Source: Pithys albifrons albifrons
Taxonomy: Eukaryota > Chordata > Aves > Passeriformes > Thamnophilidae
Direction: 5' to 3'
NCBI RefSeq assembly: GCF_047495875.1
Contig: NC_092497.1
Location: forward strand, 2,812,937 to 2,876,936
DNA length: 64,000 nucleotides
The translations under genes were made by a program, and so were the position numbers. The notes under the pieces are model-generated. The model was not told the DNA's origin and did not search any database. It worked only from the letters and a program-made list of their open reading frames with translations. How positions within the stretch are numbered: the first letter of the stretch is position 1; the number at the start of each line of letters is the position of its first letter. Of the stretch, positions 7,126 to 34,611 are shown one piece after another.

Positions 7126-7129
7126 GGTG
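7126..7129. repeat. Target-site duplication GGTG, left copy
   Basis: The four bases just left of the left LTR are GGTG, and the four bases just right of the right LTR (15485-15488) are also GGTG. With LTR ends of TG...CA this is the footprint of integrase-mediated insertion and shows the element sits where it inserted. Confidence 0.88.
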
Positions 7130-7655
7130 TGTCGCAGGTTTGGCCTAGCTGTTGCCAACCCTGGACTGGCCCCCCTTCTCCCCCAGAACCTTCCCAGCAA
7201 AGGAAAGAAAAAAAAACTGAAAAGAAACGCACTCTAAAGAAACTGAACTGAATAAAAAGAATAAATTATATTTACTAACATTTACAAACCACACTGTATA
7301 CACAACACATAGGATCCCACCTCCCAGGGGAGAGGGGAAAGGGAGAAAAGGGGATTGATTAGCTGGGAAATAGGGAAGACACCAACCCAACCCAAAGAAA
7401 CCGAATGAATCAAAAGAAACACAATTAAAAACCTCAAGGAAGGGGAACAAGAATGAAACAATCTCACCCAGGACAGGAGAAACACCAGGCACCGGAGGGA
7501 CCAGGCTTCAACCACCTCCCTCCAGCTCCTCAGCCAAGGAAGGGAAGCAGAACAAAAAACCACTCCCCCACTGCTACGTGGAAGACACGTGTGGAATACT
7601 TGTAACTTCCTTAGATACAATGGTTACTGAGGAAGCCATGGGTCAAACCATTACA
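7130..7655 (-). repeat. 3' LTR of the endogenous retrovirus
   Basis: A 526-bp direct repeat of 14959-15484, with no difference found by eye. It begins TG and ends CA on both strands, as expected of an LTR. In the viral sense it starts TGTAATGG and ends CTGCGACA. The open reading frames inside it (115 and 112 codons, overlapping, - strand) occur identically in the other LTR and have no recognisable domain, so I treat them as chance frames. Confidence 0.96.
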
Positions 7656-7668
7656 TTCTCCACCCCTT
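7656..7668 (-). other. Polypurine tract (plus-strand primer)
   Basis: Immediately upstream of the 3' LTR in the viral sense the sequence is AAGGGGTGGAGAA, purine except for one T. Its position flush against the LTR and its G-run fit the RNase H-resistant primer for plus-strand synthesis. Confidence 0.8.
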
Positions 7669-7973
7669 ATTCCACACTGGTCTTTCCACGCAATCTTCGT
7701 ATTATTGCATTTGCTTATATCCCACACACACATATATATATATATATAGTCCATATGCAGTCCTTCAAGGCAGATGTCTTGTCATCAAGGATCAACACCA
7801 GCATCAGTTCAGCTTTAGTCCATTGCCTTTTGGTTAGAGTCACAGTTCCAAGTTGAGGTCTAGTCCACAGGGCTGCCTTATCGTTGGACATCATGGGATA
7901 CCAGTACCGGCTTTGTTTGGGTTTTTCTCATCTCGTGTCTGGTTTCCTGCAAAACACAACTCAAAGCACAACA
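7669..7973 (-). other. Retroviral tail between pol and the purine tract
   Basis: About 305 bases follow the pol stop. This is far too short for an envelope gene, and I see no signal peptide, fusion peptide or transmembrane pattern. It contains a (TG)n(TA)n microsatellite near 7722-7750. One small - strand ORF (7894 down to 7715, 59 codons, starting with two tandem ATGs) has no similarity I recognise; its C-terminal codons come from the TA repeat, which argues against function. Confidence 0.7.
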
Positions 7974-10900
7974 TTAGTTCTTCCCCAAGGCTAGATTGCC
8001 TTGGGGCACACACTGGATCTCACCATCCTTCCTCATTACCCACCAGGTGTTTCCGGACCCTTGGGCAAAAACAATCCCACGAATGGGTTTGTCTTGGCCC
8101 GAGGGAGGGGTAATCCAGACAGATTTCCCTAACATGCCTCTCAAGTGAATCGCTGGAACTTTGTCTCCATCTACCGTGTGGAGGGATTCTGCTTGGGCAG
8201 GACCAGCTCGATTGACAGAGCCTCTGGTGTTAACCAACCAGGTGGCCTTGGCTAAATGCTTATCCCAGTTCTTGAAGGTTCCTCCACCTAGTGCCTTCAG
8301 AGTTGTTTTTAATAGTCCATTGCACCTTTCAACCTTTCCAGCAGCAGGTGCATGATATGGAATGTGATATACCCATTCAATACCATGCTCCCGTGCCCAA
8401 GTGGCTACTAGATTGTTCTTGAAATGAGTCCCATTATCTGACTCAATGCGATCTGGAGTGCCATGCCTCCACAGGACCTGTTTCTCAAGGCCCAAGATAG
8501 TATTCCGGGCTGTTGCATGTGGTACTGAATATGTCTCTAACCATCCGGTGGTTGCTTCCACCATGGTAAGCACATAGCGCTTACCTTGGCTAGTCTGTGG
8601 CAATGTGATGTAGTCAACCTGCCAGGCCTCTCCGTATTTATACTTGTCCCAGCGTCCACCATACCAAAGGGGCTTCAATCTTTTTGCCTGCTTAATGGCA
8701 GCACAGGTTTCACAATCGCGAATAACCTGGGAAATAGTGTCCATGGTTAAATCCACCCCTCGGTCTCGTGCCCATTTATAGGTTGCGTCCCGGCCTTGAT
8801 GGCCTGAAGCATCATGGGCCCATTGAGCTAGGAACAATTCTCCCTTTTGCTGCCAATCGAGGTCTACTTGTGACACCTCAATCTGTGCAGCTCGGTCTGC
8901 CTGTCTGTTATTATCTTGTTCCTCATTAGCTCGACTTTTGGGCACATGGGCATCTACATGGCGGACTCTCACGTTCAATTTCTTTACTCTGGCAGCAATG
9001 TCTTGCCACAGATCTGCAGCCCAGATGGGCTTCCCTCTACGCCTCCAATTCATCTTCTCCCACCGGTCTAGCCATCCCCAGAGAGCATTTGTTATCATCC
9101 ATGAGTCGGTGTACAAGTAGAGCCTTGGCCATCCTTCTCTTTCTGCAATGTCTAGGGCCAATTGGACAGCTTTGAGTTCTGCGAACTGACTCGATTCGCC
9201 TTTCCCTTCAGTGGCTTCTGCCACCCGTCTGGTGGGACTCCACACAGCTGCTCTCCACTTCCGGCTTCTCCCTACGATACGGCAAGAACCATCAGTGAAA
9301 AGGGCGTAGCGCGTCTCTTCATCTGGCAGCTGATTATATGGTGGAGCTTCTTCAGCTCGACTCACTGACTCTTCCTCTTCTTCATCTGCCAGGCTGAAGT
9401 CCCCACCTTCAGGCCAATTGGTTATAATTTCTAGAATTCCAGGGCGATTCGAGCTCCCAATTCGAACACGTTGTGTAATCAAAGCAATCCACTTGCTCCA
9501 CGTGGCATCGGTGGCATGGTGTGTAGGGGGCACTTTTCCTTTGAACATCCAGCTTAGCACCGGTAGTCGGGGTGCCAGGAAAAGCTGGGCTTCAGTACCA
9601 ATTACCTCTGAGGCTGCTCGTATGCCTTCATATGCCGCTAGGATTTCCTTCTCCATAGGGGTGTAATTGGCCTCAGAGCCTCTGTAGCTTCGGCTCCAGA
9701 AACCAAGTGGTCGCCCTCGTGTCTCACCAGGCACCTTTTGCCAGAGGCTCCAGGAGGGACCTTTATCTCCAGCTGTGGAATAAAGTACATTCTTCACATC
9801 TGGTCCCGTCCTGACTGGTCCAAGAGCCACGGCATGTGCGATTTCTTGCTTGATCTGCTTGAAAGCCTGTTGTTGTTCAGGACCCCATTGGAAAATGTTC
9901 TTTTTACGGGTCACAAAATAGAGAGGGCTCACGATCTGGCTGTACTCTGGGATGTGCATTCGCCAGAAGCCTATGGCTCCCAGAAACGCTTGGGTCTCTT
10001 TCTTATTAGTCGGTGGAGCCATTGCTACAATCTTATTGATGACGTCGGTTGGAATCTGGCGACGTCCATCTTGCCATTTCACCCCAAGGAACTGAATCTC
10101 TCTGGCAGGTCCCTTGACCTTGCTCTTTTTGATGGCAAAACCGGCTTTGAGGAGAATCTGAATAATCTTTCGTCCTTTTCCGAAAACTTCTTCTGCTGTG
10201 TCTCCCCATACAATGACATCATCAATATACTGGATGTGTTCTGGGGCCTCACCCTTCTCCAATGTGGCCTGGATCAGCCCATGACAAATGGTTGGACTGT
10301 GTTTCCACCCCTGGGGCAATCGGTTCCAAGTGTACTGCACGCCCCTCCAGGTGAAAGCAAACTGTGGCCTGCACTCTGGTGCCAGAGGAATGGAGAAGAA
10401 TGCATTAGCAATGTCAATAGTGGCATACCACTTTGCTGCTTTGGACTCCAACTCATACTGGAGCTCCAACATATCTGGCACGGCAGCACTCAGCGGTGGC
10501 GTAACTTCATTCAGGCCACGATAGTCCACAGTCAGTCTCCATTCTCCATCTGATTTACGTACAGGCCAGATAGGGCTGTTGAAGGGTGAGTGTGTTCTGC
10601 TGACCACCCCTTGGCTCTCCAGCTTCCTGATCATTTTATGGATGGGAATCACAGCATCTCGGTTTGTACGATACTGTCGCCTATGTACAGTTGCAGTGGC
10701 CATCGGTACTTCTTGATCTTTGACTTGGAGTAATCCCACAACAGAAGGGTCTTCTGAGAGACCAGGAAGAGCAGACAACTGTTTGGACTCTCCTTCAATC
10801 ACTGTGGCTACACCAAAAGCCCACCGGTACCCCTTCGGGTCCTTAAAATGTCCTCTTTTTAAATAGTCCATACCAAGAATGCTAGGGGCTTCTGGTCCTG

Positions 10901-11171
10901 TCACAATGGAATGCTTTTCCCATTGGTCTCCTGTTAGGCTCATGTCAGCCTTTACCACCGACAGGTCCTGAGACCCTCCGGTAACTCCAGAAATAGACAC
11001 AGTCTCTGTACTCACATGTTCTGATGGCATTAATGTACATTGGGCACCAGTATCTACCAAAGCTCGATATTTCTGAGGATCCGATGTGCCAGGCCATCGA
11101 ACCCACACAGCCCAATAAACCCGATTATCATCCTCGTCCCTCTCCTCCTCCTGGCAGGAGGCAGGGCCCCT
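7974..11171 (-). CDS. pol: Pol polyprotein: protease, RT, RNase H, integrase (ERV-L-like)
   Basis: The frame is open from the codon after the gag UAG to a TAA at 7974-7976. No convincing ATG opens it, and the first usable alternative codon is GTG at 11108, so it is probably made only as a Gag-Pol readthrough product. Residues below are numbered from that GTG. Aspartic protease: LVDTGAQ (17-23). Reverse transcriptase: LTVDYRGLN (192-200), catalytic D232 in TIDIANAFF, LPQGW (264-268) and the YIDD box (294-297). RNase H: acidic residues D606 (FTDGS), E644, D668 (YTDSW) and D738. Integrase: zinc-binding H765, H770, C799, C802; catalytic D832, D891 and E927 with the D-35-E spacing; then a tryptophan-bearing C-terminal domain. 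All key catalytic residues are present and there is no internal stop. It ends after integrase, without the dUTPase seen in mammalian ERV-L. An acidic linker (EEEEE, about 576-580) separates the RT connection from RNase H. Confidence 0.95.
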   Translation of the reverse strand, partial: RGPASCQEEERDEDDNRVYWAVWVRWPGTSDPQKYRALVDTGAQCTLMPSEHVSTETVSISGVTGGSQDLSVVKADMSLTGDQWEKHSIVTGPEAPSILGMDYLKRGHFKDPKGYRWAFGVATVIEGESKQLSALPGLSEDPSVVGLLQVKDQEVPMATATVHRRQYRTNRDAVIPIHKMIRKLESQGVVSRTHSPFNSPIWPVRKSDGEWRLTVDYRGLNEVTPPLSAAVPDMLELQYELESKAAKWYATIDIANAFFSIPLAPECRPQFAFTWRGVQYTWNRLPQGWKHSPTICHGLIQATLEKGEAPEHIQYIDDVIVWGDTAEEVFGKGRKIIQILLKAGFAIKKSKVKGPAREIQFLGVKWQDGRRQIPTDVINKIVAMAPPTNKKETQAFLGAIGFWRMHIPEYSQIVSPLYFVTRKKNIFQWGPEQQQAFKQIKQEIAHAVALGPVRTGPDVKNVLYSTAGDKGPSWSLWQKVPGETRGRPLGFWSRSYRGSEANYTPMEKEILAAYEGIRAASEVIGTEAQLFLAPRLPVLSWMFKGKVPPTHHATDATWSKWIALITQRVRIGSSNRPGILEIITNWPEGGDFSLADEEEEESVSRAEEAPPYNQLPDEETRYALFTDGSCRIVGRSRKWRAAVWSPTRRVAEATEGKGESSQFAELKAVQLALDIAEREGWPRLYLYTDSWMITNALWGWLDRWEKMNWRRRGKPIWAADLWQDIAARVKKLNVRVRHVDAHVPKSRANEEQDNNRQADRAAQIEVSQVDLDWQQKGELFLAQWAHDASGHQGRDATYKWARDRGVDLTMDTISQVIRDCETCAAIKQAKRLKPLWYGGRWDKYKYGEAWQVDYITLPQTSQGKRYVLTMVEATTGWLETYSVPHATARNTILGLEKQVLWRHGTPDRIESDNGTHFKNNLVATWAREHGIEWVYHIPYHAPAAGKVERCNGLLKTTLKALGGGTFKNWDKHLAKATWLVNTRGSVNRAGPAQAESLHTVDGDKVPAIHLRGMLGKSVWITPPSGQDKPIRGIVFAQGSGNTWWVMRKDGEIQCVPQGNLALGKN

Positions 11172-11174
11172 CTA
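11147..11174 (-). promoter_or_regulatory. Gag-pol UAG with downstream hairpin (probable readthrough site)
   Basis: In the viral sense gag ends with two CAA codons and UAG (11174-11172). Pol continues in the same frame. Ten bases after the UAG lies CCTCCT-GCC-AGGAGG (11161-11147), a perfect 6-bp stem with a 3-nt loop. Gammaretroviruses use UAG readthrough promoted by a pseudoknot starting about 8 nt downstream, so the geometry is similar. Same frame, single stop and hairpin are seen; recoding is inferred. I did not identify a pseudoknot partner for the loop. Confidence 0.65.
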
Positions 11175-14100
11175 TTGTTGTTCCTGGTCGGAGCATTCTC
11201 CATCTGACGTGTGCGATGCTCTGTCAGAGGCTCCTTCATCAGCATGGGGGGAGTTGTTTCTTTTGCGTCTCGAAGATCGATGTTTCTTTTCCGGGGTCTT
11301 TGCTTCAACTATGTGGACAGCTTTTTTGCCAGCTACTTTCCGTTTTAATTCCTGCACTCGGGCTTTAAGTTTAGAGGTGGGTTCACCGTGCCATTTTTTC
11401 ATGTTTTCCCCTAGTTCACGCAGAAGGGCCCACAAGAAACCACGCTCACTTTGTGTCTTACTCCTGGGGCTTCCAGTTTTCTCTCGTGCTGCATGAGATG
11501 ACCGAGAACGGGAGCGGGAATGAGAATGAGAACTGGAACGAGAATAAGAACGAGACCTTTCTTTGCGACCTCTAGAACATCTGTGTCTAGGTTCTTCTTC
11601 ATACACAGAACGTCTAGTATTCTTCTGGTGGCCTCTAGTTCTCCCTCGTGCTGCATGAGGTGACCAAGAACGGGAACGGGACCGAGAACAGGAACAGGAA
11701 CTTGAATGAGAATGAGAACGAGACCTTTCTTTGTGACCTCTGGGACCTTTGCCTCTAGGTTCTTCTTCATACACAGAGCGTCTAGCATTCCTCCCTACCC
11801 TTTCCCCACTGTAGAGGGACGAATGCTGGTAGTTAGAGGGGACCCTCATGGTTTCTGATATTCTCCGTATCCAGTGACACATTCTGTCAACGTGTATCTC
11901 ATTCTCGTCCATACTTAGAGGGTATGCAGATATCAGACATGGCATATAAGACTTAGGGGCCCCATTCATCACCTTATCCCACATCGGCTGTGTGCATGGC
12001 ATCTTCTCTGGGACCAAGATGTCATAGTAATTTGGATCGGAGTATATAATCTCCAGCATGGCCAGTTCCCGCAGATACTGGATGCCTTCTTCTGCAGTAT
12101 TCCACTCTCTCGGAGCACTCACCAAATACTCTTTAAATGGGTATCTTGCCCTCACGGCACGGAGGATTCGGGTCCAGAGACTGGATGCCATCTCCCCCTG
12201 TCCCATTTCCTGTTCTATTTCACGGTCTCGGGCAAGAGATCCCAATTGTTGTGCTTCATGACCTTCCAGCACATGACTACTGGCCCCCTGGTCCCAACAT
12301 CGCACCAGCCAGGTGAGGATGCGTTCATCGGGCCACCGACTGTAATCCCTTCGTATATCTCGAATCTCCTTTGGGGTCAATGATCGTATAATTTCACTTT
12401 CCCTCATTATTTCCTGTCCATCTCTTCCACGTACTATTCTCTCTACCTGTGTTTTTACTCTTCCACTCCTTCGTGGAACCTCTCTCACTTCCTTTCTGAC
12501 CCTCTCACGCGAAGATGGGGATTGTTCAGGCCGTGAAGATGAGCTTCTATGGTGTTCACTCCGGGAGGATGGGCTCCTACGTCGCCCACGCTGTGGAGAG
12601 AGACTTCTACTTCGTTCGAGCCGTGGGGAAAGACTCCTAGCTCGTGCACCCCGTGAAAGGGAGCTCCTGCGTTGTTCATCAGGTCTGATGAATGGAGGTA
12701 GCACATAGTCCTTGGAAGGCCGGGGTAAGGGCCTTCCCCGGTCATCTATTCCCTCAAATGTAGGTCTAGTATGGGGAGGTGGAATCATACTTCCAAGAGA
12801 GGGTTGCCTTAGGAGAGGCTGAAACGGTCCTTCCTCAGGCTGATGGAAGCGCGTTGACCTCCTCTCTTCCTCCACTGGGTACTTGCGTATGTAGTCAGAG
12901 CACCAATCGTCGAATGTTCTTCTATCCCAGGATGCTCGCACCGTCCCTTTCCTTTCTCCAGGCATGCCTCTGGTCTCTTTTGGGCGTGCCCCCAGTCCCA
13001 TTAGGTGTGCCCCATCCCTTGTGACCACTCCTCCCTCTCTGGCGGCTGCTCCCTCTTCTACTGTGACTATTCTTTCCTCTTGTGCCGTCGCTCCTTCCAT
13101 CGTCACAGTAGTTTCTTCCTCTCTCGCAGCTGCTTCTTCATCTACTTCTTCTTCTTCTTCTTTTTCTTCTTCTTCTTGTTCCTCTTCTTCTTCTTCTTGT
13201 TCCAATTGCGGAGGTGGCTCTATGGGTTTTGTAGTCTCCTTTGTCCTCGTTGTTTTCTTCTTTATGGGGGCAATGATAATCCTCCGGTCCATAACTTCAG
13301 TTTGAGTTCCCACAGAGCGAATAGGAACTGTATCCGCGTCGGCTTGAGTTTGAGCTTCAACTGTGGTCTTGGTGGGTTTAGTAGGAATGACCGCTTCCAG
13401 ATCTGCAGCTTGAGTCTGAGTTTCCACAGAGCGAATAGAAACTGTATCAACGTCGGCCTGAGTCTGAGCTTCAACTGTGGTCTTAGCAGGCTTAATAGAG
13501 ATGGCAACCTCCAGATCTACGGCTTGAGTCTGAATTTCTACGGAACAACTGGAAGCTGTATTAGCTTCAGCTTGTGTCTGGGTTTCAGCCGTGGTTGTAG
13601 CAGGGACAGCAGAAACGGCCTTGTCCGGATTTGCAGCCTGGGTCTGGGTTTCTGTCGAGCAAACAGAGACTGTATTTGCTTCAGCCTGCGTCTGAGTTTC
13701 AGCTGTGGTTGTAGAAGGGACAGCAGAAATGGCCTTGTCCAGATTTGAAACCTGAGTTTGGGTTTCTACTGAGCAAACAGAGGCTGAAACTTGAGTTTGG
13801 GTCCCTACAGAGTGAACGGGGGCTTTGTTGGCCTCTGTTTGAGTCTGAGTCTCAACTGTAGTTTTAGCAGGGACAGCGGAGGTAGCCATGTCCGGGTCTG
13901 CAGCTTGAGTTTGGGTTTCTACAGATGGGACGGAGGCTGTATTAGTTTCAGCTGCTTGAGTTTGGGTCTCTACAGAAACAGCCTTCACCTCATGCTGTGT
14001 TTGGACTCCGCTTTCGGTAGTCTGAACAGGGACTGCACGGGTCTCGGATGGCATATCTCCATATTCTATCCTGTCCTCAAGCCATTGACAGTAGTCTATG

Positions 14101-14777
14101 GCACATCGATAAGCACTAGCCAGGCCCCAACACAAAGCAGAGACGCGCGTATACGGGTCCTCATAGGAAAAACACTCTTCTGATAAACAGCGGGCCACCT
14201 CAGCAGAGTCACACACTTGTTCTGACGTGAACTTCCAAAAAACGGAGGGTGAGATACGCCCTAGCACTTTACCGAGATCCGTCCAAGGCCCATCCCACCC
14301 TGGGACTGGCCTGTCCGAAGCCCCTTCCAAAGTTCCAGCGAGTCCCCCAGAGGCATAGCCTTTCTTAGGTCTAAAACAAGGGAAGCAACAAAGTGCCAGC
14401 ATTCTTCCAATCTTATACAACAGTTCCATTACCCTCATAAACACTAGTGCTGTCACAATACAATTTAGGTAATAACTGGGACCAATTGTAACAGTAGGGA
14501 TCTCCCTCAATAGTCCATTAATGTCATAATTTAACAGGCCTTTAATGTCAAGATTCAGGAGGGCCTTACATGGATGACAATTATCAGGCAGACCTAGGTA
14601 TGTCCCTAGGAGACCTCTCAGAGTGGGAGTAAGCATTAGCAGCATCAGTATGTAAAGGAATAGAAAGACACTTAACAGGAGGCCTTTCACTACAAGAGAC
14701 TGCCAGGCCATGCCAGCATGGTTGGACTGACCTCCTCTGGTACCTCTCAGGTATTTGCTAAAAAGGGTGAAAACCAT
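11172..14777 (-). CDS. gag: Gag polyprotein with TQT (LC8-like) repeat array
   Basis: An ORF of 1201 codons with an intact frame, about twice a usual Gag. The ATG is in strong context (A at -3, G at +4). Layout by residue: hydrophobic segment 28-50; second hydrophobic segment 103-121 followed by a Cys-rich patch LALCCFPCF (127-135); repeat region 253-495 with a 38-residue unit carrying paired xETQTQ motifs; glutamate-rich tract 526-548; Ser/Arg-rich block 704-760; a folded, Trp-containing region about 797-985 that I take by position to be capsid; Ser/Arg-rich tandem duplication 996-1108; basic tail to 1201. There is no CCHC zinc knuckle, so RNA binding probably rests on the basic and SR blocks, as foamy virus Gag uses Gly/Arg-rich boxes. 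There is no clear Gly2 myristoylation signal (it starts MVF). The retroviral Gag identity rests on position (5' LTR, leader, ORF, in-frame UAG, pol) and on the capsid-like region; the N-terminal half is unlike any Gag I know. Confidence 0.85.
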   Translation of the reverse strand: MVFTLFSKYLRGTRGGQSNHAGMAWQSLVVKGLLLSVFLFLYILMLLMLTPTLRGLLGTYLGLPDNCHPCKALLNLDIKGLLNYDINGLLREIPTVTIGPSYYLNCIVTALVFMRVMELLYKIGRMLALCCFPCFRPKKGYASGGLAGTLEGASDRPVPGWDGPWTDLGKVLGRISPSVFWKFTSEQVCDSAEVARCLSEECFSYEDPYTRVSALCWGLASAYRCAIDYCQWLEDRIEYGDMPSETRAVPVQTTESGVQTQHEVKAVSVETQTQAAETNTASVPSVETQTQAADPDMATSAVPAKTTVETQTQTEANKAPVHSVGTQTQVSASVCSVETQTQVSNLDKAISAVPSTTTAETQTQAEANTVSVCSTETQTQAANPDKAVSAVPATTTAETQTQAEANTASSCSVEIQTQAVDLEVAISIKPAKTTVEAQTQADVDTVSIRSVETQTQAADLEAVIPTKPTKTTVEAQTQADADTVPIRSVGTQTEVMDRRIIIAPIKKKTTRTKETTKPIEPPPQLEQEEEEEEQEEEEKEEEEEVDEEAAAREEETTVTMEGATAQEERIVTVEEGAAAREGGVVTRDGAHLMGLGARPKETRGMPGERKGTVRASWDRRTFDDWCSDYIRKYPVEEERRSTRFHQPEEGPFQPLLRQPSLGSMIPPPHTRPTFEGIDDRGRPLPRPSKDYVLPPFIRPDEQRRSSLSRGARARSLSPRLERSRSLSPQRGRRRSPSSRSEHHRSSSSRPEQSPSSRERVRKEVREVPRRSGRVKTQVERIVRGRDGQEIMRESEIIRSLTPKEIRDIRRDYSRWPDERILTWLVRCWDQGASSHVLEGHEAQQLGSLARDREIEQEMGQGEMASSLWTRILRAVRARYPFKEYLVSAPREWNTAEEGIQYLRELAMLEIIYSDPNYYDILVPEKMPCTQPMWDKVMNGAPKSYMPCLISAYPLSMDENEIHVDRMCHWIRRISETMRVPSNYQHSSLYSGERVGRNARRSVYEEEPRGKGPRGHKERSRSHSHSSSCSCSRSRSRSWSPHAARGRTRGHQKNTRRSVYEEEPRHRCSRGRKERSRSYSRSSSHSHSRSRSRSSHAAREKTGSPRSKTQSERGFLWALLRELGENMKKWHGEPTSKLKARVQELKRKVAGKKAVHIVEAKTPEKKHRSSRRKRNNSPHADEGASDRASHTSDGECSDQEQQ
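11454..11792 (-). repeat. In-frame 168-bp duplication in gag (SR repeat)
   Basis: The coding unit RRSVYEEEPR followed by a Ser/Arg-rich run appears twice with a period of 168 bases (56 codons): residues about 999-1054 and 1055-1108. The duplicated 'gttcttcttcat' starts at 11591 and 11759. Copies have diverged at scattered positions while keeping frame and composition, so this is an older duplication than the insertion itself. Confidence 0.85.
13293..14021 (-). repeat. Tandem 114-bp repeats encoding the TQT array in gag
   Basis: This segment encodes residues 253-495. The unit is about 38 codons and contains two copies of a [VA]ETQTQ-like motif, 22 and then 16 residues apart. TQT cores start at residues 271, 288, 310, 326, 339, 361, 377, 399, 453 and 491. 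Near-variants with V, I or A before QT occur at 258, 415, 437 and 475. The repeats have diverged individually while the motif stays, which suggests selection on it rather than simple slippage. Confidence 0.9.
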
Positions 14778-14936: not shown

Positions 14937-14954
14937 ATCTCGGTAGAACCTCCA
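14937..14954 (-). other. Primer binding site, tRNA-Gln-like
   Basis: Four bases inside the 5' LTR the viral strand reads TGGAGGTTCTACCGAGAT. It is complementary to the 3' 18 bases of vertebrate tRNA-Gln (including CCA) with one mismatch, at the G of GGTGGAACC. The TGG start and position are as expected for a retroviral PBS. The 4-base spacer to the LTR is slightly longer than the usual 0-3. Confidence 0.8.
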
Positions 14955-14958
14955 ATAA

Positions 14959-15484
14959 TGTCGCAGGTTTGGCCTAGCTGTTGCCAACCCTGGACTGGCC
15001 CCCCTTCTCCCCCAGAACCTTCCCAGCAAAGGAAAGAAAAAAAAACTGAAAAGAAACGCACTCTAAAGAAACTGAACTGAATAAAAAGAATAAATTATAT
15101 TTACTAACATTTACAAACCACACTGTATACACAACACATAGGATCCCACCTCCCAGGGGAGAGGGGAAAGGGAGAAAAGGGGATTGATTAGCTGGGAAAT
15201 AGGGAAGACACCAACCCAACCCAAAGAAACCGAATGAATCAAAAGAAACACAATTAAAAACCTCAAGGAAGGGGAACAAGAATGAAACAATCTCACCCAG
15301 GACAGGAGAAACACCAGGCACCGGAGGGACCAGGCTTCAACCACCTCCCTCCAGCTCCTCAGCCAAGGAAGGGAAGCAGAACAAAAAACCACTCCCCCAC
15401 TGCTACGTGGAAGACACGTGTGGAATACTTGTAACTTCCTTAGATACAATGGTTACTGAGGAAGCCATGGGTCAAACCATTACA
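14959..15484 (-). repeat. 5' LTR of the endogenous retrovirus
   Basis: The 526-bp partner of 7130-7655. In the viral sense an AT-rich AAATATAATTTA (15103-15091) about 385 bases in is the best TATA-like site. I find no AATAAA; AGTAAA beside the TATA-like site is the only near variant of a poly(A) signal. Transcription would run leftwards, away from LOXHD1. Confidence 0.96.
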
Positions 15485-15488
15485 GGTG
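15485..15488. repeat. Target-site duplication GGTG, right copy
   Basis: It matches the GGTG at 7126-7129. The empty site before insertion would have held a single GGTG. Confidence 0.88.
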
Positions 15489-33471: not shown

Positions 33472-34325
33472 GAATCATAGAATAGAATCATAGAATCGAT
33501 TGGGTTGGAAAAGACCTCTGAGATCAAGTCCAACCCTTGGTTCAACTCCAGTCCCATCTCAGTTTAAAAACCTCCAGGGAAGGTGAATCCACCCCCTCTC
33601 AGGGCAACCCATTCCAATGCCTGAGCACTCTCTCTGCAAAGAATTTTTTTCTGACTTCCAACTTCAATTTCCCCTGGCAGAGCTTGAGCCCGTGCCCCCT
33701 TGTCCTATTGCTGAGTGCCTGGGAGAAGAGACCAACCCCCACCTGGCCAGAACTTCCCTTCAGGTAGTTCTAGACAGTGCTGAGGTCAACTCTGAGCCTC
33801 CTCTTCTCCAGGCTAAACTCCCTCAGCCTCTCCCCACAGCACTTGTGCTCCAGTTCCTTCACCAGCCTCGTTGCTCTTCTCTGGACCTGCTCCAGCCCCT
33901 CAAGATCTTTCCTGAACTGAGGGGCCCAGAACTGAACACAACACTCAAGGTGTGGCCTCACCAGCGCTGAGTCCAGGGGAAGGGTCACTGCCCTGGGCCT
34001 GCTGGCCATGCGATTTTTGATACAGGACAGGATCTCATTGACCTTCTTGGCACACTGTTGGCTCCTGTTGAGCTTCCTGTCACTCAGTCCCCCCAGGTCC
34101 CTTTCTGCCTGGCTGCTCTCCATCCACTCTGTGCCCAGCCTGGAGCGCTGCAGGGGGTTGTTGTGGCAAAAGTGTAAGAACTGGCACTTGGCCTTGTTGA
34201 ACTTCATCCCATTGGAATCAGCCCATCTCTCAAGTCTATCCAGATCCCTCTGCAGAGCCCTCCTGCCTTCCAGCAGGTTGACACTCCCTCCCGACTTGGT
34301 GTCATCAGCAGACAGACTGTCTTGA
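33472..34325 (-). repeat. CR1 LINE, 850 bp, with extended 3' tail repeat
   Basis: The longest CR1 of the window. At the 3' end (33472-33505) the ATAGAATC-type octamer is repeated about four times in imperfect form. Inwards follow the 3' untranslated modules ('gggttggaaaagacctctg') and then about 550 bases of open reverse-transcriptase C-terminal coding sequence (separate entry). It is 5'-truncated. Confidence 0.93.
33770..34316 (-). pseudogene. CR1 ORF2 remnant (C-terminal reverse transcriptase)
   Basis: A continuous frame of about 180 codons. It starts in the region just after the catalytic motif of the LINE reverse transcriptase (an ADDTK-like SADDTKSGG is visible) and continues with [42 protein letters not shown] and QFWAPQF, typical of CR1 ORF2. 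Endonuclease and most of the RT are missing by 5' truncation, and the frame closes early at 33770. Dead as a gene. Confidence 0.88.
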
Positions 34326-34611
34326 ACAATACAACCTGTAAGTCCTAGCACTTCGTCATCAGTGAAAAAAAACACACTAGAAAATCTGACTGAACTTTAG
34401 AAAAGTTTCTGGGAACTTGCAGAGTATTGTCATGACTGTTTTTCTGCATTATTACAAGAAAAATGCTTCCAGCCACATGCCTGCCCACCAGCATGAAGCT
34501 GAGCACAATTTGACCTCACTCCTGAAAACAGAAACAGGGTCAAATTTTGCTGAGCCTCTGTGGGGAAAGGATGGAGGATGCCTTAAAGGCCCTTTCCCCG
34601 AATAAAAGCTA

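What the first reader, a model, noticed from the sequence alone, without database searches (positions are those of the whole stretch)
13293..14021. Retroviral Gag carrying a tandem array of LC8 (DYNLL) TQT docking motifs
Seen: residues 253-495 of the gag ORF are a 38-residue repeat with ten exact TQT cores, mostly as VETQTQ, AETQTQ or VGTQT, plus four [VIA]QT near-variants, spaced mainly about 16-22 residues apart. Known: TQT is the anchor of the dynein light chain LC8 binding motif, multivalent LC8 partners carry regularly spaced TQT sites in disordered regions, and a Gag-LC8 interaction has been reported for primate foamy virus. Inferred: this Gag may use a poly-LC8 'ladder' to cross-link itself, to travel along microtubules to the centrosome, or to sequester a host hub protein. 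Conservation of the core while linkers drift suggests selection. I know of no described Gag with such an array.
Basis: partly seen in the sequence, partly recalled or inferred. Interest (0 to 1): 0.85.

Follow-up and report, generated by a model that had tools for sequence, protein, structure and literature searches.

The report
Avian retroviral Gag with LC8-motif array
A young bird endogenous retrovirus carries, in the flexible hinge of its capsid protein, a long ladder of short motifs predicted to grip a host dimer-making protein (LC8); related bird elements show shorter ladders of other repeat lengths at the same place.

Summary
Window 11172-14777(-) is an open 1201-aa Gag frame; residues 253-495 hold ten non-overlapping TQT cores (11 counted overlapping) plus four [VIA]QT variants. 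The provirus is young: 526-nt LTRs without a difference, CACC on both flanks, in-frame pol after one TAG, no env-sized ORF. At 12 sites fixed by the DNA period, Q and T(+1) never change residue despite synonymous drift (6:0 synonymous:nonsynonymous; linkers 30:32). Gag relatives lie in many bird orders. Their hinge, between an N-terminal membrane/matrix-like part and capsid, holds [TVI]QT in 31 of 49 countable Gags (window included); arrays of three or more have periods of 10, 13, 20, 26 or 38 residues. Of 17 countable B-type Gags 13 have exactly two TQT, so the long array probably grew in a passerine lineage. A score trained on published LC8 peptides puts 2 of 16 sites above all non-binders and 6 more above 85% of them; 7 look like non-binders. 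LC8 binding is likely but unproven. I favour LC8 zipping parallel Gag chains into a stalk over dynein transport. Five literature searches listed no such Gag.

The parts
14959..15484 (-). 5' LTR, TGTAATGG...GCGACA
   Evidence: 526 nt, 0 differences from 3' LTR (first seen)
7130..7655 (-). 3' LTR
15485..15488 (-). CACC, 5' copy of a 4-bp target-site duplication (partner 7126-7129)
   Evidence: flanks printed
14937..14954 (-). primer-binding-site candidate; resembles the complement of a tRNA-Gln 3' end (tRNA identity recalled, not tested)
   Evidence: sequence
11172..14777 (-). gag ORF, 1201 aa, ends in TAG
14628..14684 (-). Gag residues 32-50, predicted membrane helix (hydropathy 2.58)
   Evidence: N-terminal hydrophobic segments in 14 of the 17 relatives scanned there
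14058..14246 (-). matrix-like conserved domain, about residues 178-240, with ALCWGLA at 214-220
   Evidence: 'matrix-like' is by position, no fold tested
13293..14021 (-). TQT array, residues 253-495: ten TQT plus VQT259, IQT416, AQT438, AQT476; 38-residue unit with two sites
13254..13274 (-). basic patch IAPIKKK (502-508) that follows the array; counterparts such as IAPVVKKK in most B-type rows printed
13133..13202 (-). acidic Glu-rich run, coded by an imperfect trinucleotide tract
11847..12392 (-). capsid domain, residues 796-977
   Evidence: homology to other Gags (alignment); boundaries from a profile that included the window itself; fold comparison suggestive
11464..11790 (-). duplicated Arg/Ser-rich segment in Gag C-terminus (168-nt unit)
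7974..11171 (-). pro-pol frame, in frame with gag after one TAG; protease (weak match), RT, RNase H, integrase
7656..7973 (-). 318-nt spacer between pol and 3' LTR; longest open run about 70 codons; purine run directly before the LTR
   Evidence: three frames printed; no other minus-strand ORF of 150 aa or more in the element

Best explanation
The hinge between the membrane-anchored, matrix-like N-terminus and the capsid domain of this Gag is a multivalent LC8 (DYNLL) docking strip. Shown: motif array, young provirus with open frames, coding constraint on Q0 and T+1 between copies, TQT motifs in the same hinge of relatives, arrays of several different periods. Inferred: LC8 dimers bind paired sites of two parallel Gag chains and zip them into a rod. 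That rod would dimerise Gag and hold membrane and capsid lattice apart or in register. Weak sites would be filled through their neighbours, as in ASCIZ. The growth to 14 candidate sites would have raised the avidity of an older one- or two-site interaction.
For: (1) With 12 non-overlapping, period-defined sites Q0/T+1 codons show 6 synonymous and 0 nonsynonymous changes, linkers 30:32, p=0.026; in the five DNA-defined copies, which overlap, 9:0 against 49:47, p=0.004. (2) In 47 other distinct hinges TQ is followed by T in 47 of 59 cases, although T is 12.9% of the hinge, and in 0 of 23 cases in 48 capsid domains; residues before QT there are T 47, V 6, I 3, A 5, N 1, C 1, and Y 15 from a YQT just after the matrix-like signature. 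T/V/I before Q is the published anchor set (abstract). (3) 16 of 17 countable B-type Gags keep at least one TQT; 7 of the 17 are crane copies, the others raptor, owl, mousebird, stork, passerine, or unnamed. (4) [TVI]QT arrays of 3 or more with distinct periods: 10 (P0041), 13 (P0064, P0115), 20 (P0043, P0056, P0112), 26 (P0024), 38 (window). (5) Sites 454 RSVETQTQ and 492 RSVGTQTE outscore all 28 published non-binders used; 492 matches the phage-evolved consensus VSRGTQTE at 6 of 8 positions. The array has 8 windows above the lower quartile of known binders, 500 shuffles a mean of 0.7 and at most 4. (6) Linkers, taken as spacing minus 8, are 5, 8, 9 or 14 residues; 6 and 9 give homogeneous LC8 duplexes in fly ASCIZ, and the barrier between mid-length and long is not set there (PMC10046861 passages).
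Against: No binding data. 7 of 16 scored sites score like non-binders; KMT2C VSVSTQTA, close to VSVETQTQ, is a published non-binder. Q+2 is also near-invariant (11 of 12), which LC8 does not need. 18 of 49 countable hinges hold no [TVI]QT, and some carry TPTP repeats of the same kind without Q (P0027); only 9 of 32 A-type hinges have a TQT. Many relatives' sites also score low, e.g. the first site of the crane/eagle pair. In Willisornis gene model P0007 several array cores read VQI, AQA or VQA; it may be a dead copy. The charge-hydropathy index of the array is borderline, not clearly disordered. Many relatives are copies within a few hosts, so counts are not independent.
Confidence: 0.5

Rival explanations
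1. LC8 binds, but the array serves dynein-driven transport of incoming or assembling capsids to the centrosome, as proposed for foamy virus Gag.
For: Foamy virus Gag binds LC8 and helix-breaking mutations in CC3 abolish centrosomal trafficking of incoming capsids (PMC3705263 passages).
Against: A 2025 review says that all LC8 complex structures to date carry the same client on both sites, against the cargo-adaptor model, with Bim/Bmf as an exception (PMC12017986 passages). No env-sized ORF, so capsid entry from outside may not be part of this element's cycle.
Confidence: 0.12
2. SQ/TQ cluster: the array is a target for ATM/ATR kinases (cluster definition recalled), not an LC8 strip.
For: TQTQ gives many TQ pairs (24 in the window hinge); TQ at +1/+2 is kept in 11 of 12 period-defined sites.
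Against: The first T is replaced by I or A in 3 of 12 sites while T+1 is kept in 12 of 12; relatives with VQT and IQT have no TQ at that place; T follows TQ in 47 of 59 cases in other hinges, which such a kinase would not need; no SQ in the window hinge.
Confidence: 0.08
3. Low-complexity hinge that expands and shrinks by slippage or unequal recombination; length and disorder matter, the TQT core does not.
For: Hinge length and period differ freely; TPTP and no-Q repeats occur in relatives; 18 of 49 hinges lack [TVI]QT.
Against: Synonymous-only drift of Q0/T+1 between copies; TQT in 16 of 17 B-type Gags.
Confidence: 0.22
4. Molecular sponge: the array titrates LC8 away from host users such as ASCIZ or transposon silencing.
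For: Number of candidate sites lies in the range of human ASCIZ (11 verified; 16 predicted); LC8 serves transposon silencing in Drosophila (PMC7861614, title and abstract start in the listing).
Confidence: 0.08

Closest known systems
ASCIZ (ATMIN) LC8-binding domain
   Same: Long disordered region with many TQT sites of unequal strength; 11 verified in human, 7 in fly (passages)
   Different: Host transcription factor with irregular linkers; here a tandem 38-residue unit in a viral Gag; homology neither seen nor tested
Nup159-Dyn2 rod
   Same: Array of LC8 sites on a disordered chain; stacks of LC8 seen by EM (passages)
   Different: Five sites, yeast nucleoporin; rod formation shown there, only inferred here
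Prototype foamy virus Gag-LC8
   Same: Retroviral Gag reported to bind LC8 (passages)
   Different: Depends on coiled coil CC3; no TQT array mentioned in the passages read
Ovex1
   Same: Bird endogenous retrovirus, gag and pol in one frame across a stop
   Different: Ancient, without typical LTRs, 565-residue Gag with coiled coil and MHR; no array in the Gag section read
Bird Gag relatives of this family (e.g. P0002, P0023, P0024, P0043)
   Same: Matrix-like domain, hinge with [TVI]QT, capsid domain; N-terminal hydrophobic segments in 14 of 17 scanned
   Different: 0 to 5 TQT in the hinge instead of ten, other periods

Membership tests
Multivalent (polybivalent) LC8 clients | Several [TVI]QT anchors in one protein | tested here: met
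   ten TQT plus VQT and IQT
Multivalent (polybivalent) LC8 clients | Sites lie in a disordered region | tested here: inconclusive
   no F/W/Y in residues 250-497, but charge-hydropathy index +0.04, borderline
Multivalent (polybivalent) LC8 clients | Flanking residues suit LC8 | tested here: inconclusive
   own matrix, leave-one-out AUC 0.876; 2 of 16 sites above all non-binders, 6 more above 85% of them, 7 at or below 64%; LC8Pred itself not available
Multivalent (polybivalent) LC8 clients | Direct binding and parallel duplex with LC8 | not testable with these tools
   needs protein chemistry
Retroviral Gag | ORF upstream of and in frame with pro-pol between LTRs | tested here: met
Retroviral Gag | Capsid C-terminal domain fold | tested here: inconclusive
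Retroviral Gag | Major homology region and CCHC zinc knuckle | tested here: inconclusive
   two simple patterns found neither; Ovex1 and foamy viruses also lack the knuckle, foamy viruses the MHR
SQ/TQ cluster domain | Cluster of SQ/TQ pairs (definition recalled) | tested here: met
   24 TQ pairs, no SQ, in the window hinge
SQ/TQ cluster domain | Constraint on the [ST]Q pair itself | tested here: inconclusive
   first T replaced in 3 of 12 sites, but TQ at +1/+2 kept in 11 of 12
Ovex1 | Locus without typical LTRs, Gag of 565 aa with MHR | tested here: not met
   identical 526-nt LTRs, 1201-aa Gag

The most novel reading that the evidence does not exclude
A whole clade of bird endogenous retroviruses builds its Gag with a host-made stalk: LC8 dimers zip the hinges of paired, membrane-anchored Gag chains. 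The number and spacing of rungs has been re-invented by independent tandem duplication in passerine, stork, mousebird and raptor lineages. The window copy, with 14 candidate rungs, would be the longest LC8 ladder of any virus in the papers I saw, between the 11 verified and 16 predicted sites of human ASCIZ.
Probability: 0.3. Interest if true: 0.9.

Novelty: new variant of a known kind. Interest (0 to 1): 0.72.

Why it matters
LC8 arrays are known from a few cellular proteins, and the one Gag-LC8 contact I read about (foamy virus) goes through a coiled coil. A Gag family whose hinge has several times been built into a TQT array would be a natural series of multivalency experiments, with ladders of 1 to 14 candidate rungs and defined spacing. 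It would let one test how rung number and linker length set LC8 stoichiometry, and whether retroelements use a host dimer hub as a structural part of Gag assembly instead of as a motor adaptor.

Tried and rejected
Ovex1 was the first candidate; its Gag section shows a different, shorter Gag. Foldseek against PDB gave nothing at E<=0.001. A first structure job on a five-row alignment gave no usable model (pLDDT 39). PDB sequence searches with the array and with a 63-row profile found nothing. Pfam gave no Gag family for the ORF; for five rows of relatives it gave only matches of E 0.047 to 0.15, one of them Retrotran_gag_2. A scan of viral contigs with pol found nothing. Patterns for the late-domain types P[TS]AP, PPxY, YPx[LI] found none in Gag.

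Selection was first counted on 14 sites chosen by their QT, which is circular for Q and T; I repeated it on sites fixed by the DNA repeat and rest on that. In the five-copy count neighbouring copies overlap, so the 12-site count is the safer one. The linker counts leave out positions -2, -1 and +2 (9 synonymous, 4 nonsynonymous together in the 12-site run). Changes were counted by parsimony on neighbour-joining trees that ignore recombination between copies. DNA of bird relatives was not available, so dN/dS between elements could not be measured.

Hinge counts use 49 sequences: 48 of the 127 fetched proteins plus the window. The other 79 lacked a near-complete capsid domain or the matrix-like signature. 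P0112 and P0115, cited as arrays, are outside those 49 and were read by eye. Only 120 of the 283 hits were listed and used. For the LC8 matrix I took 24 binders and 28 non-binders by hand from the tables; left out were four weak binders, a duplicate MUC4 peptide, the weak TMT peptide of ASCIZ, and 15 non-binder rows, mostly without a usable xQ[TVIL] core (tables).

Full report
WHAT IS THERE. The finding lies in an endogenous retrovirus on the minus strand. Its LTRs (14959-15484 and 7130-7655) are 526 nt long and do not differ at any position; both flanks show CACC. The gag ORF (11172-14777) has 1201 codons and ends in TAG. Pol follows in the same frame, with RT, RNase H and integrase matches above Pfam's cut-offs and a weak protease match. 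The best PDB sequence matches to pol are 'RT/RNase H p80' (1.2e-53) and 'Pr125Pol' (1e-50) chains (best 60 of 315 shown), which I recall as gammaretroviral and foamy virus enzymes. Between pol and the 3' LTR lie 318 nt with no open run above about 70 codons, and one search lists no other minus-strand ORF of 150 aa in the element. So the copy is a young, env-less gag-pol element with open frames; activity was not tested.

THE ARRAY. Residues 253-495 are 13293-14021 exactly. They contain all 11 TQT of Gag (ten if the two sharing a T at 311/313 are counted once) and VQT259, IQT416, AQT438, AQT476. The last nine sites alternate 22 and 16 residues apart (one 38-residue unit, two sites). The repeat is seen without any motif in mind by TRF and the repeat finder. 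Shuffling the stretch gives 1.1 TQT on average, at most 7 in 20,000, but for duplicated sequence that is a weak test.

IS THE CORE KEPT BY SELECTION? Copies made by duplication start identical, so the useful question is what changed since. With 12 non-overlapping sites fixed by the DNA period, Q and T(+1) codons show 6 synonymous and 0 nonsynonymous changes, linkers 30 and 32 (p=0.026). In the five DNA-defined copies, which overlap, it is 9:0 against 49:47 (p=0.004). The preceding T is freer (I or A in 3 of 12). Q+2 is also nearly fixed (11 of 12), which LC8 does not call for and which I cannot explain. A first version of the test chose sites by their QT and is circular. The result speaks for constraint on the amino acids Q and T, not for LC8 as such.

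DOES IT LOOK LIKE LC8 BINDING? I built a position matrix from published peptides (24 binders, 28 non-binders, chosen by hand from tables in PMC6607443 and PMC5963919). Leave-one-out AUC is 0.876. Of 16 [TVIA]QT sites scored, 454 (RSVETQTQ) and 492 (RSVGTQTE) outscore all 28 non-binders. Sites 340, 311, 362, 378 and 400 outscore 89-96% of them, 252 outscores 86% and 327 outscores 82%. The other seven (259, 272, 289, 313, 416, 438, 476) outscore 39-64% and look like non-binders. Eight windows of the array pass the lower quartile of known binders, against a mean of 0.7 and a maximum of 4 in 500 shuffles. The matrix is small, and one Gag segment without a Q (at 516) also scored high, so single scores are rough. 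Published rules prefer a large residue at -3, no large hydrophobic residue at -4, and P, D or E at +2 (PMC6607443 section); V-3 and S/T-4 fit, Q+2 is neutral. In ASCIZ positive cooperativity helps neighbouring weak sites (PMC5963919 passages). Linkers of 6 and 9 residues give homogeneous duplexes in fly ASCIZ, 3, 30 and 41 heterogeneous ones (PMC10046861 passages); here spacing minus 8, my conversion, gives 5, 8, 9 or 14.

RELATIVES. Three protein searches found the Gag family in birds named as crane, hawk, eagle, owl, mousebird, stork, ibis, duck, goose and passerine species (common names partly recalled); 283 hits, 120 listed. Many are gene models built over element copies, several with misleading names. 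N-terminal hydrophobic segments were found in 14 of 17 relatives scanned; the three without (P0047, P0051, P0101) may be cut models. The capsid tree (56 rows, quick method, 25 of 52 inner branches weak) puts the window with Manacus (support 92) and, one step out, Pitangus (98), all Passeriformes. These sit in a B-type assemblage, not itself a supported clade, in which 13 of 17 countable members carry exactly two TQT, 13 residues apart in most (VEAGTQTAAEDTVAEIGTQT in a crane). The nearest rows to the window, from Manacus and Pitangus, have no countable hinge, so the step from two sites to many is inferred from farther kin and from Willisornis models P0007-P0009, which have two or three TQT each, one of P0009's outside the Gag part. 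A second, A-type clade (33 rows, support 100) often has a Thr/Ala/Pro-rich hinge. Among 49 countable hinges (window included) 31 have at least one [TVI]QT and 18 have none. TQT is present in 16 of 17 B-type and 9 of 32 A-type Gags. [TVI]QT arrays of three or more in these 49: window, P0043 (5, period 20), P0056 (4, period 20), P0024 (3, period 26), P0041 (3, period 10), P0064 (3, period 13); P0112 (period 20) and P0115 (period 13) were seen outside the 49. Different periods on separate branches suggest separate tandem duplications. Against this, P0027 has 10-residue TPTP repeats without Q. In Willisornis P0007 the upstream part of the array reads VQI, AQA and VQA.

LC8 OR TQ CLUSTER? In 47 other distinct hinges TQ is followed by T in 47 of 59 cases with T at 12.9% of residues; in 48 capsid domains in 0 of 23. 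Residues before QT in those hinges are T 47, V 6, I 3, A 5, N 1, C 1 and Y 15, the Y from a YQT just after the matrix-like signature. A kinase TQ cluster does not need T at +1, and V/I before QT destroys TQ but is accepted by LC8. Related copies inflate these counts, and the well-kept TQ at +1/+2 in the window is a point for the cluster.

MECHANISM. I favour LC8 dimers zipping two parallel Gag hinges into a stalk between membrane anchor and capsid (inferred). The dimer-hub view is from PMC12017986 (passages), which says structures argue against the cargo-adaptor idea and notes an exception (Bim/Bmf). Transport, a TQ phosphorylation cluster, an LC8 sponge and plain repeat drift are the rivals.

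IS IT KNOWN? Full-text searches listed no paper on such a Gag, judged from titles and abstract starts: LC8/gag/TQT/retrovir (20 of 36 listed), DYNLL1/Gag/endogenous retrovirus (1 of 1), avian ERV gag repeat terms (10 of 10), LC8/endogenous retrovirus (15 of 15), dynein light chain/Gag/avian terms (12 of 184). The library lacks most subscription journals. Foamy virus Gag binds LC8 through CC3 (PMC3705263 passages). So the kind (multivalent LC8 client) is known, and its occurrence as an array in a Gag family appears new.

Noticed in passing
window 14340-14777 (Gag N-terminus): Gag begins with a strongly hydrophobic, probably membrane-spanning segment and the element has no env-sized ORF; N-terminal hydrophobic segments recur in 14 of 17 relatives scanned. 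This recalls an intracellular, ER-budding lifestyle (analogy recalled, not tested).
   Followed up: partly
window 11464-11790: A second tandem repeat (168 nt, two copies) codes Arg/Ser-rich stretches like those of splicing factors; Manacus relative P0101 has its own RRSPSP repeats.
   Followed up: no
window 13005-13748 (+): A 247-codon open frame runs antisense through much of the array; probably a by-product of its codon make-up.
   Followed up: no
P0027, P0041, P0045 hinges: 10-residue repeats occur with TQTP or TPTP cores in relatives; a Q to P change can be one base, so the anchor may be gained and lost quickly.
   Followed up: partly
window array, position +2: Q at +2 is nearly invariant (11 of 12 sites, with synonymous changes) although LC8 needs no Q there; relatives have A, T, I, P, L or S among others.
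   Followed up: partly
window 33770-34375 (-): Weak reverse-transcriptase match (E 0.0013, below Pfam's cut-off), probably an old retroelement fragment.
   Followed up: no
P0096: A protein of this bird Gag family is filed under Klebsiella pneumoniae on a 2-kb contig, probably host DNA in a bacterial assembly.
   Followed up: no
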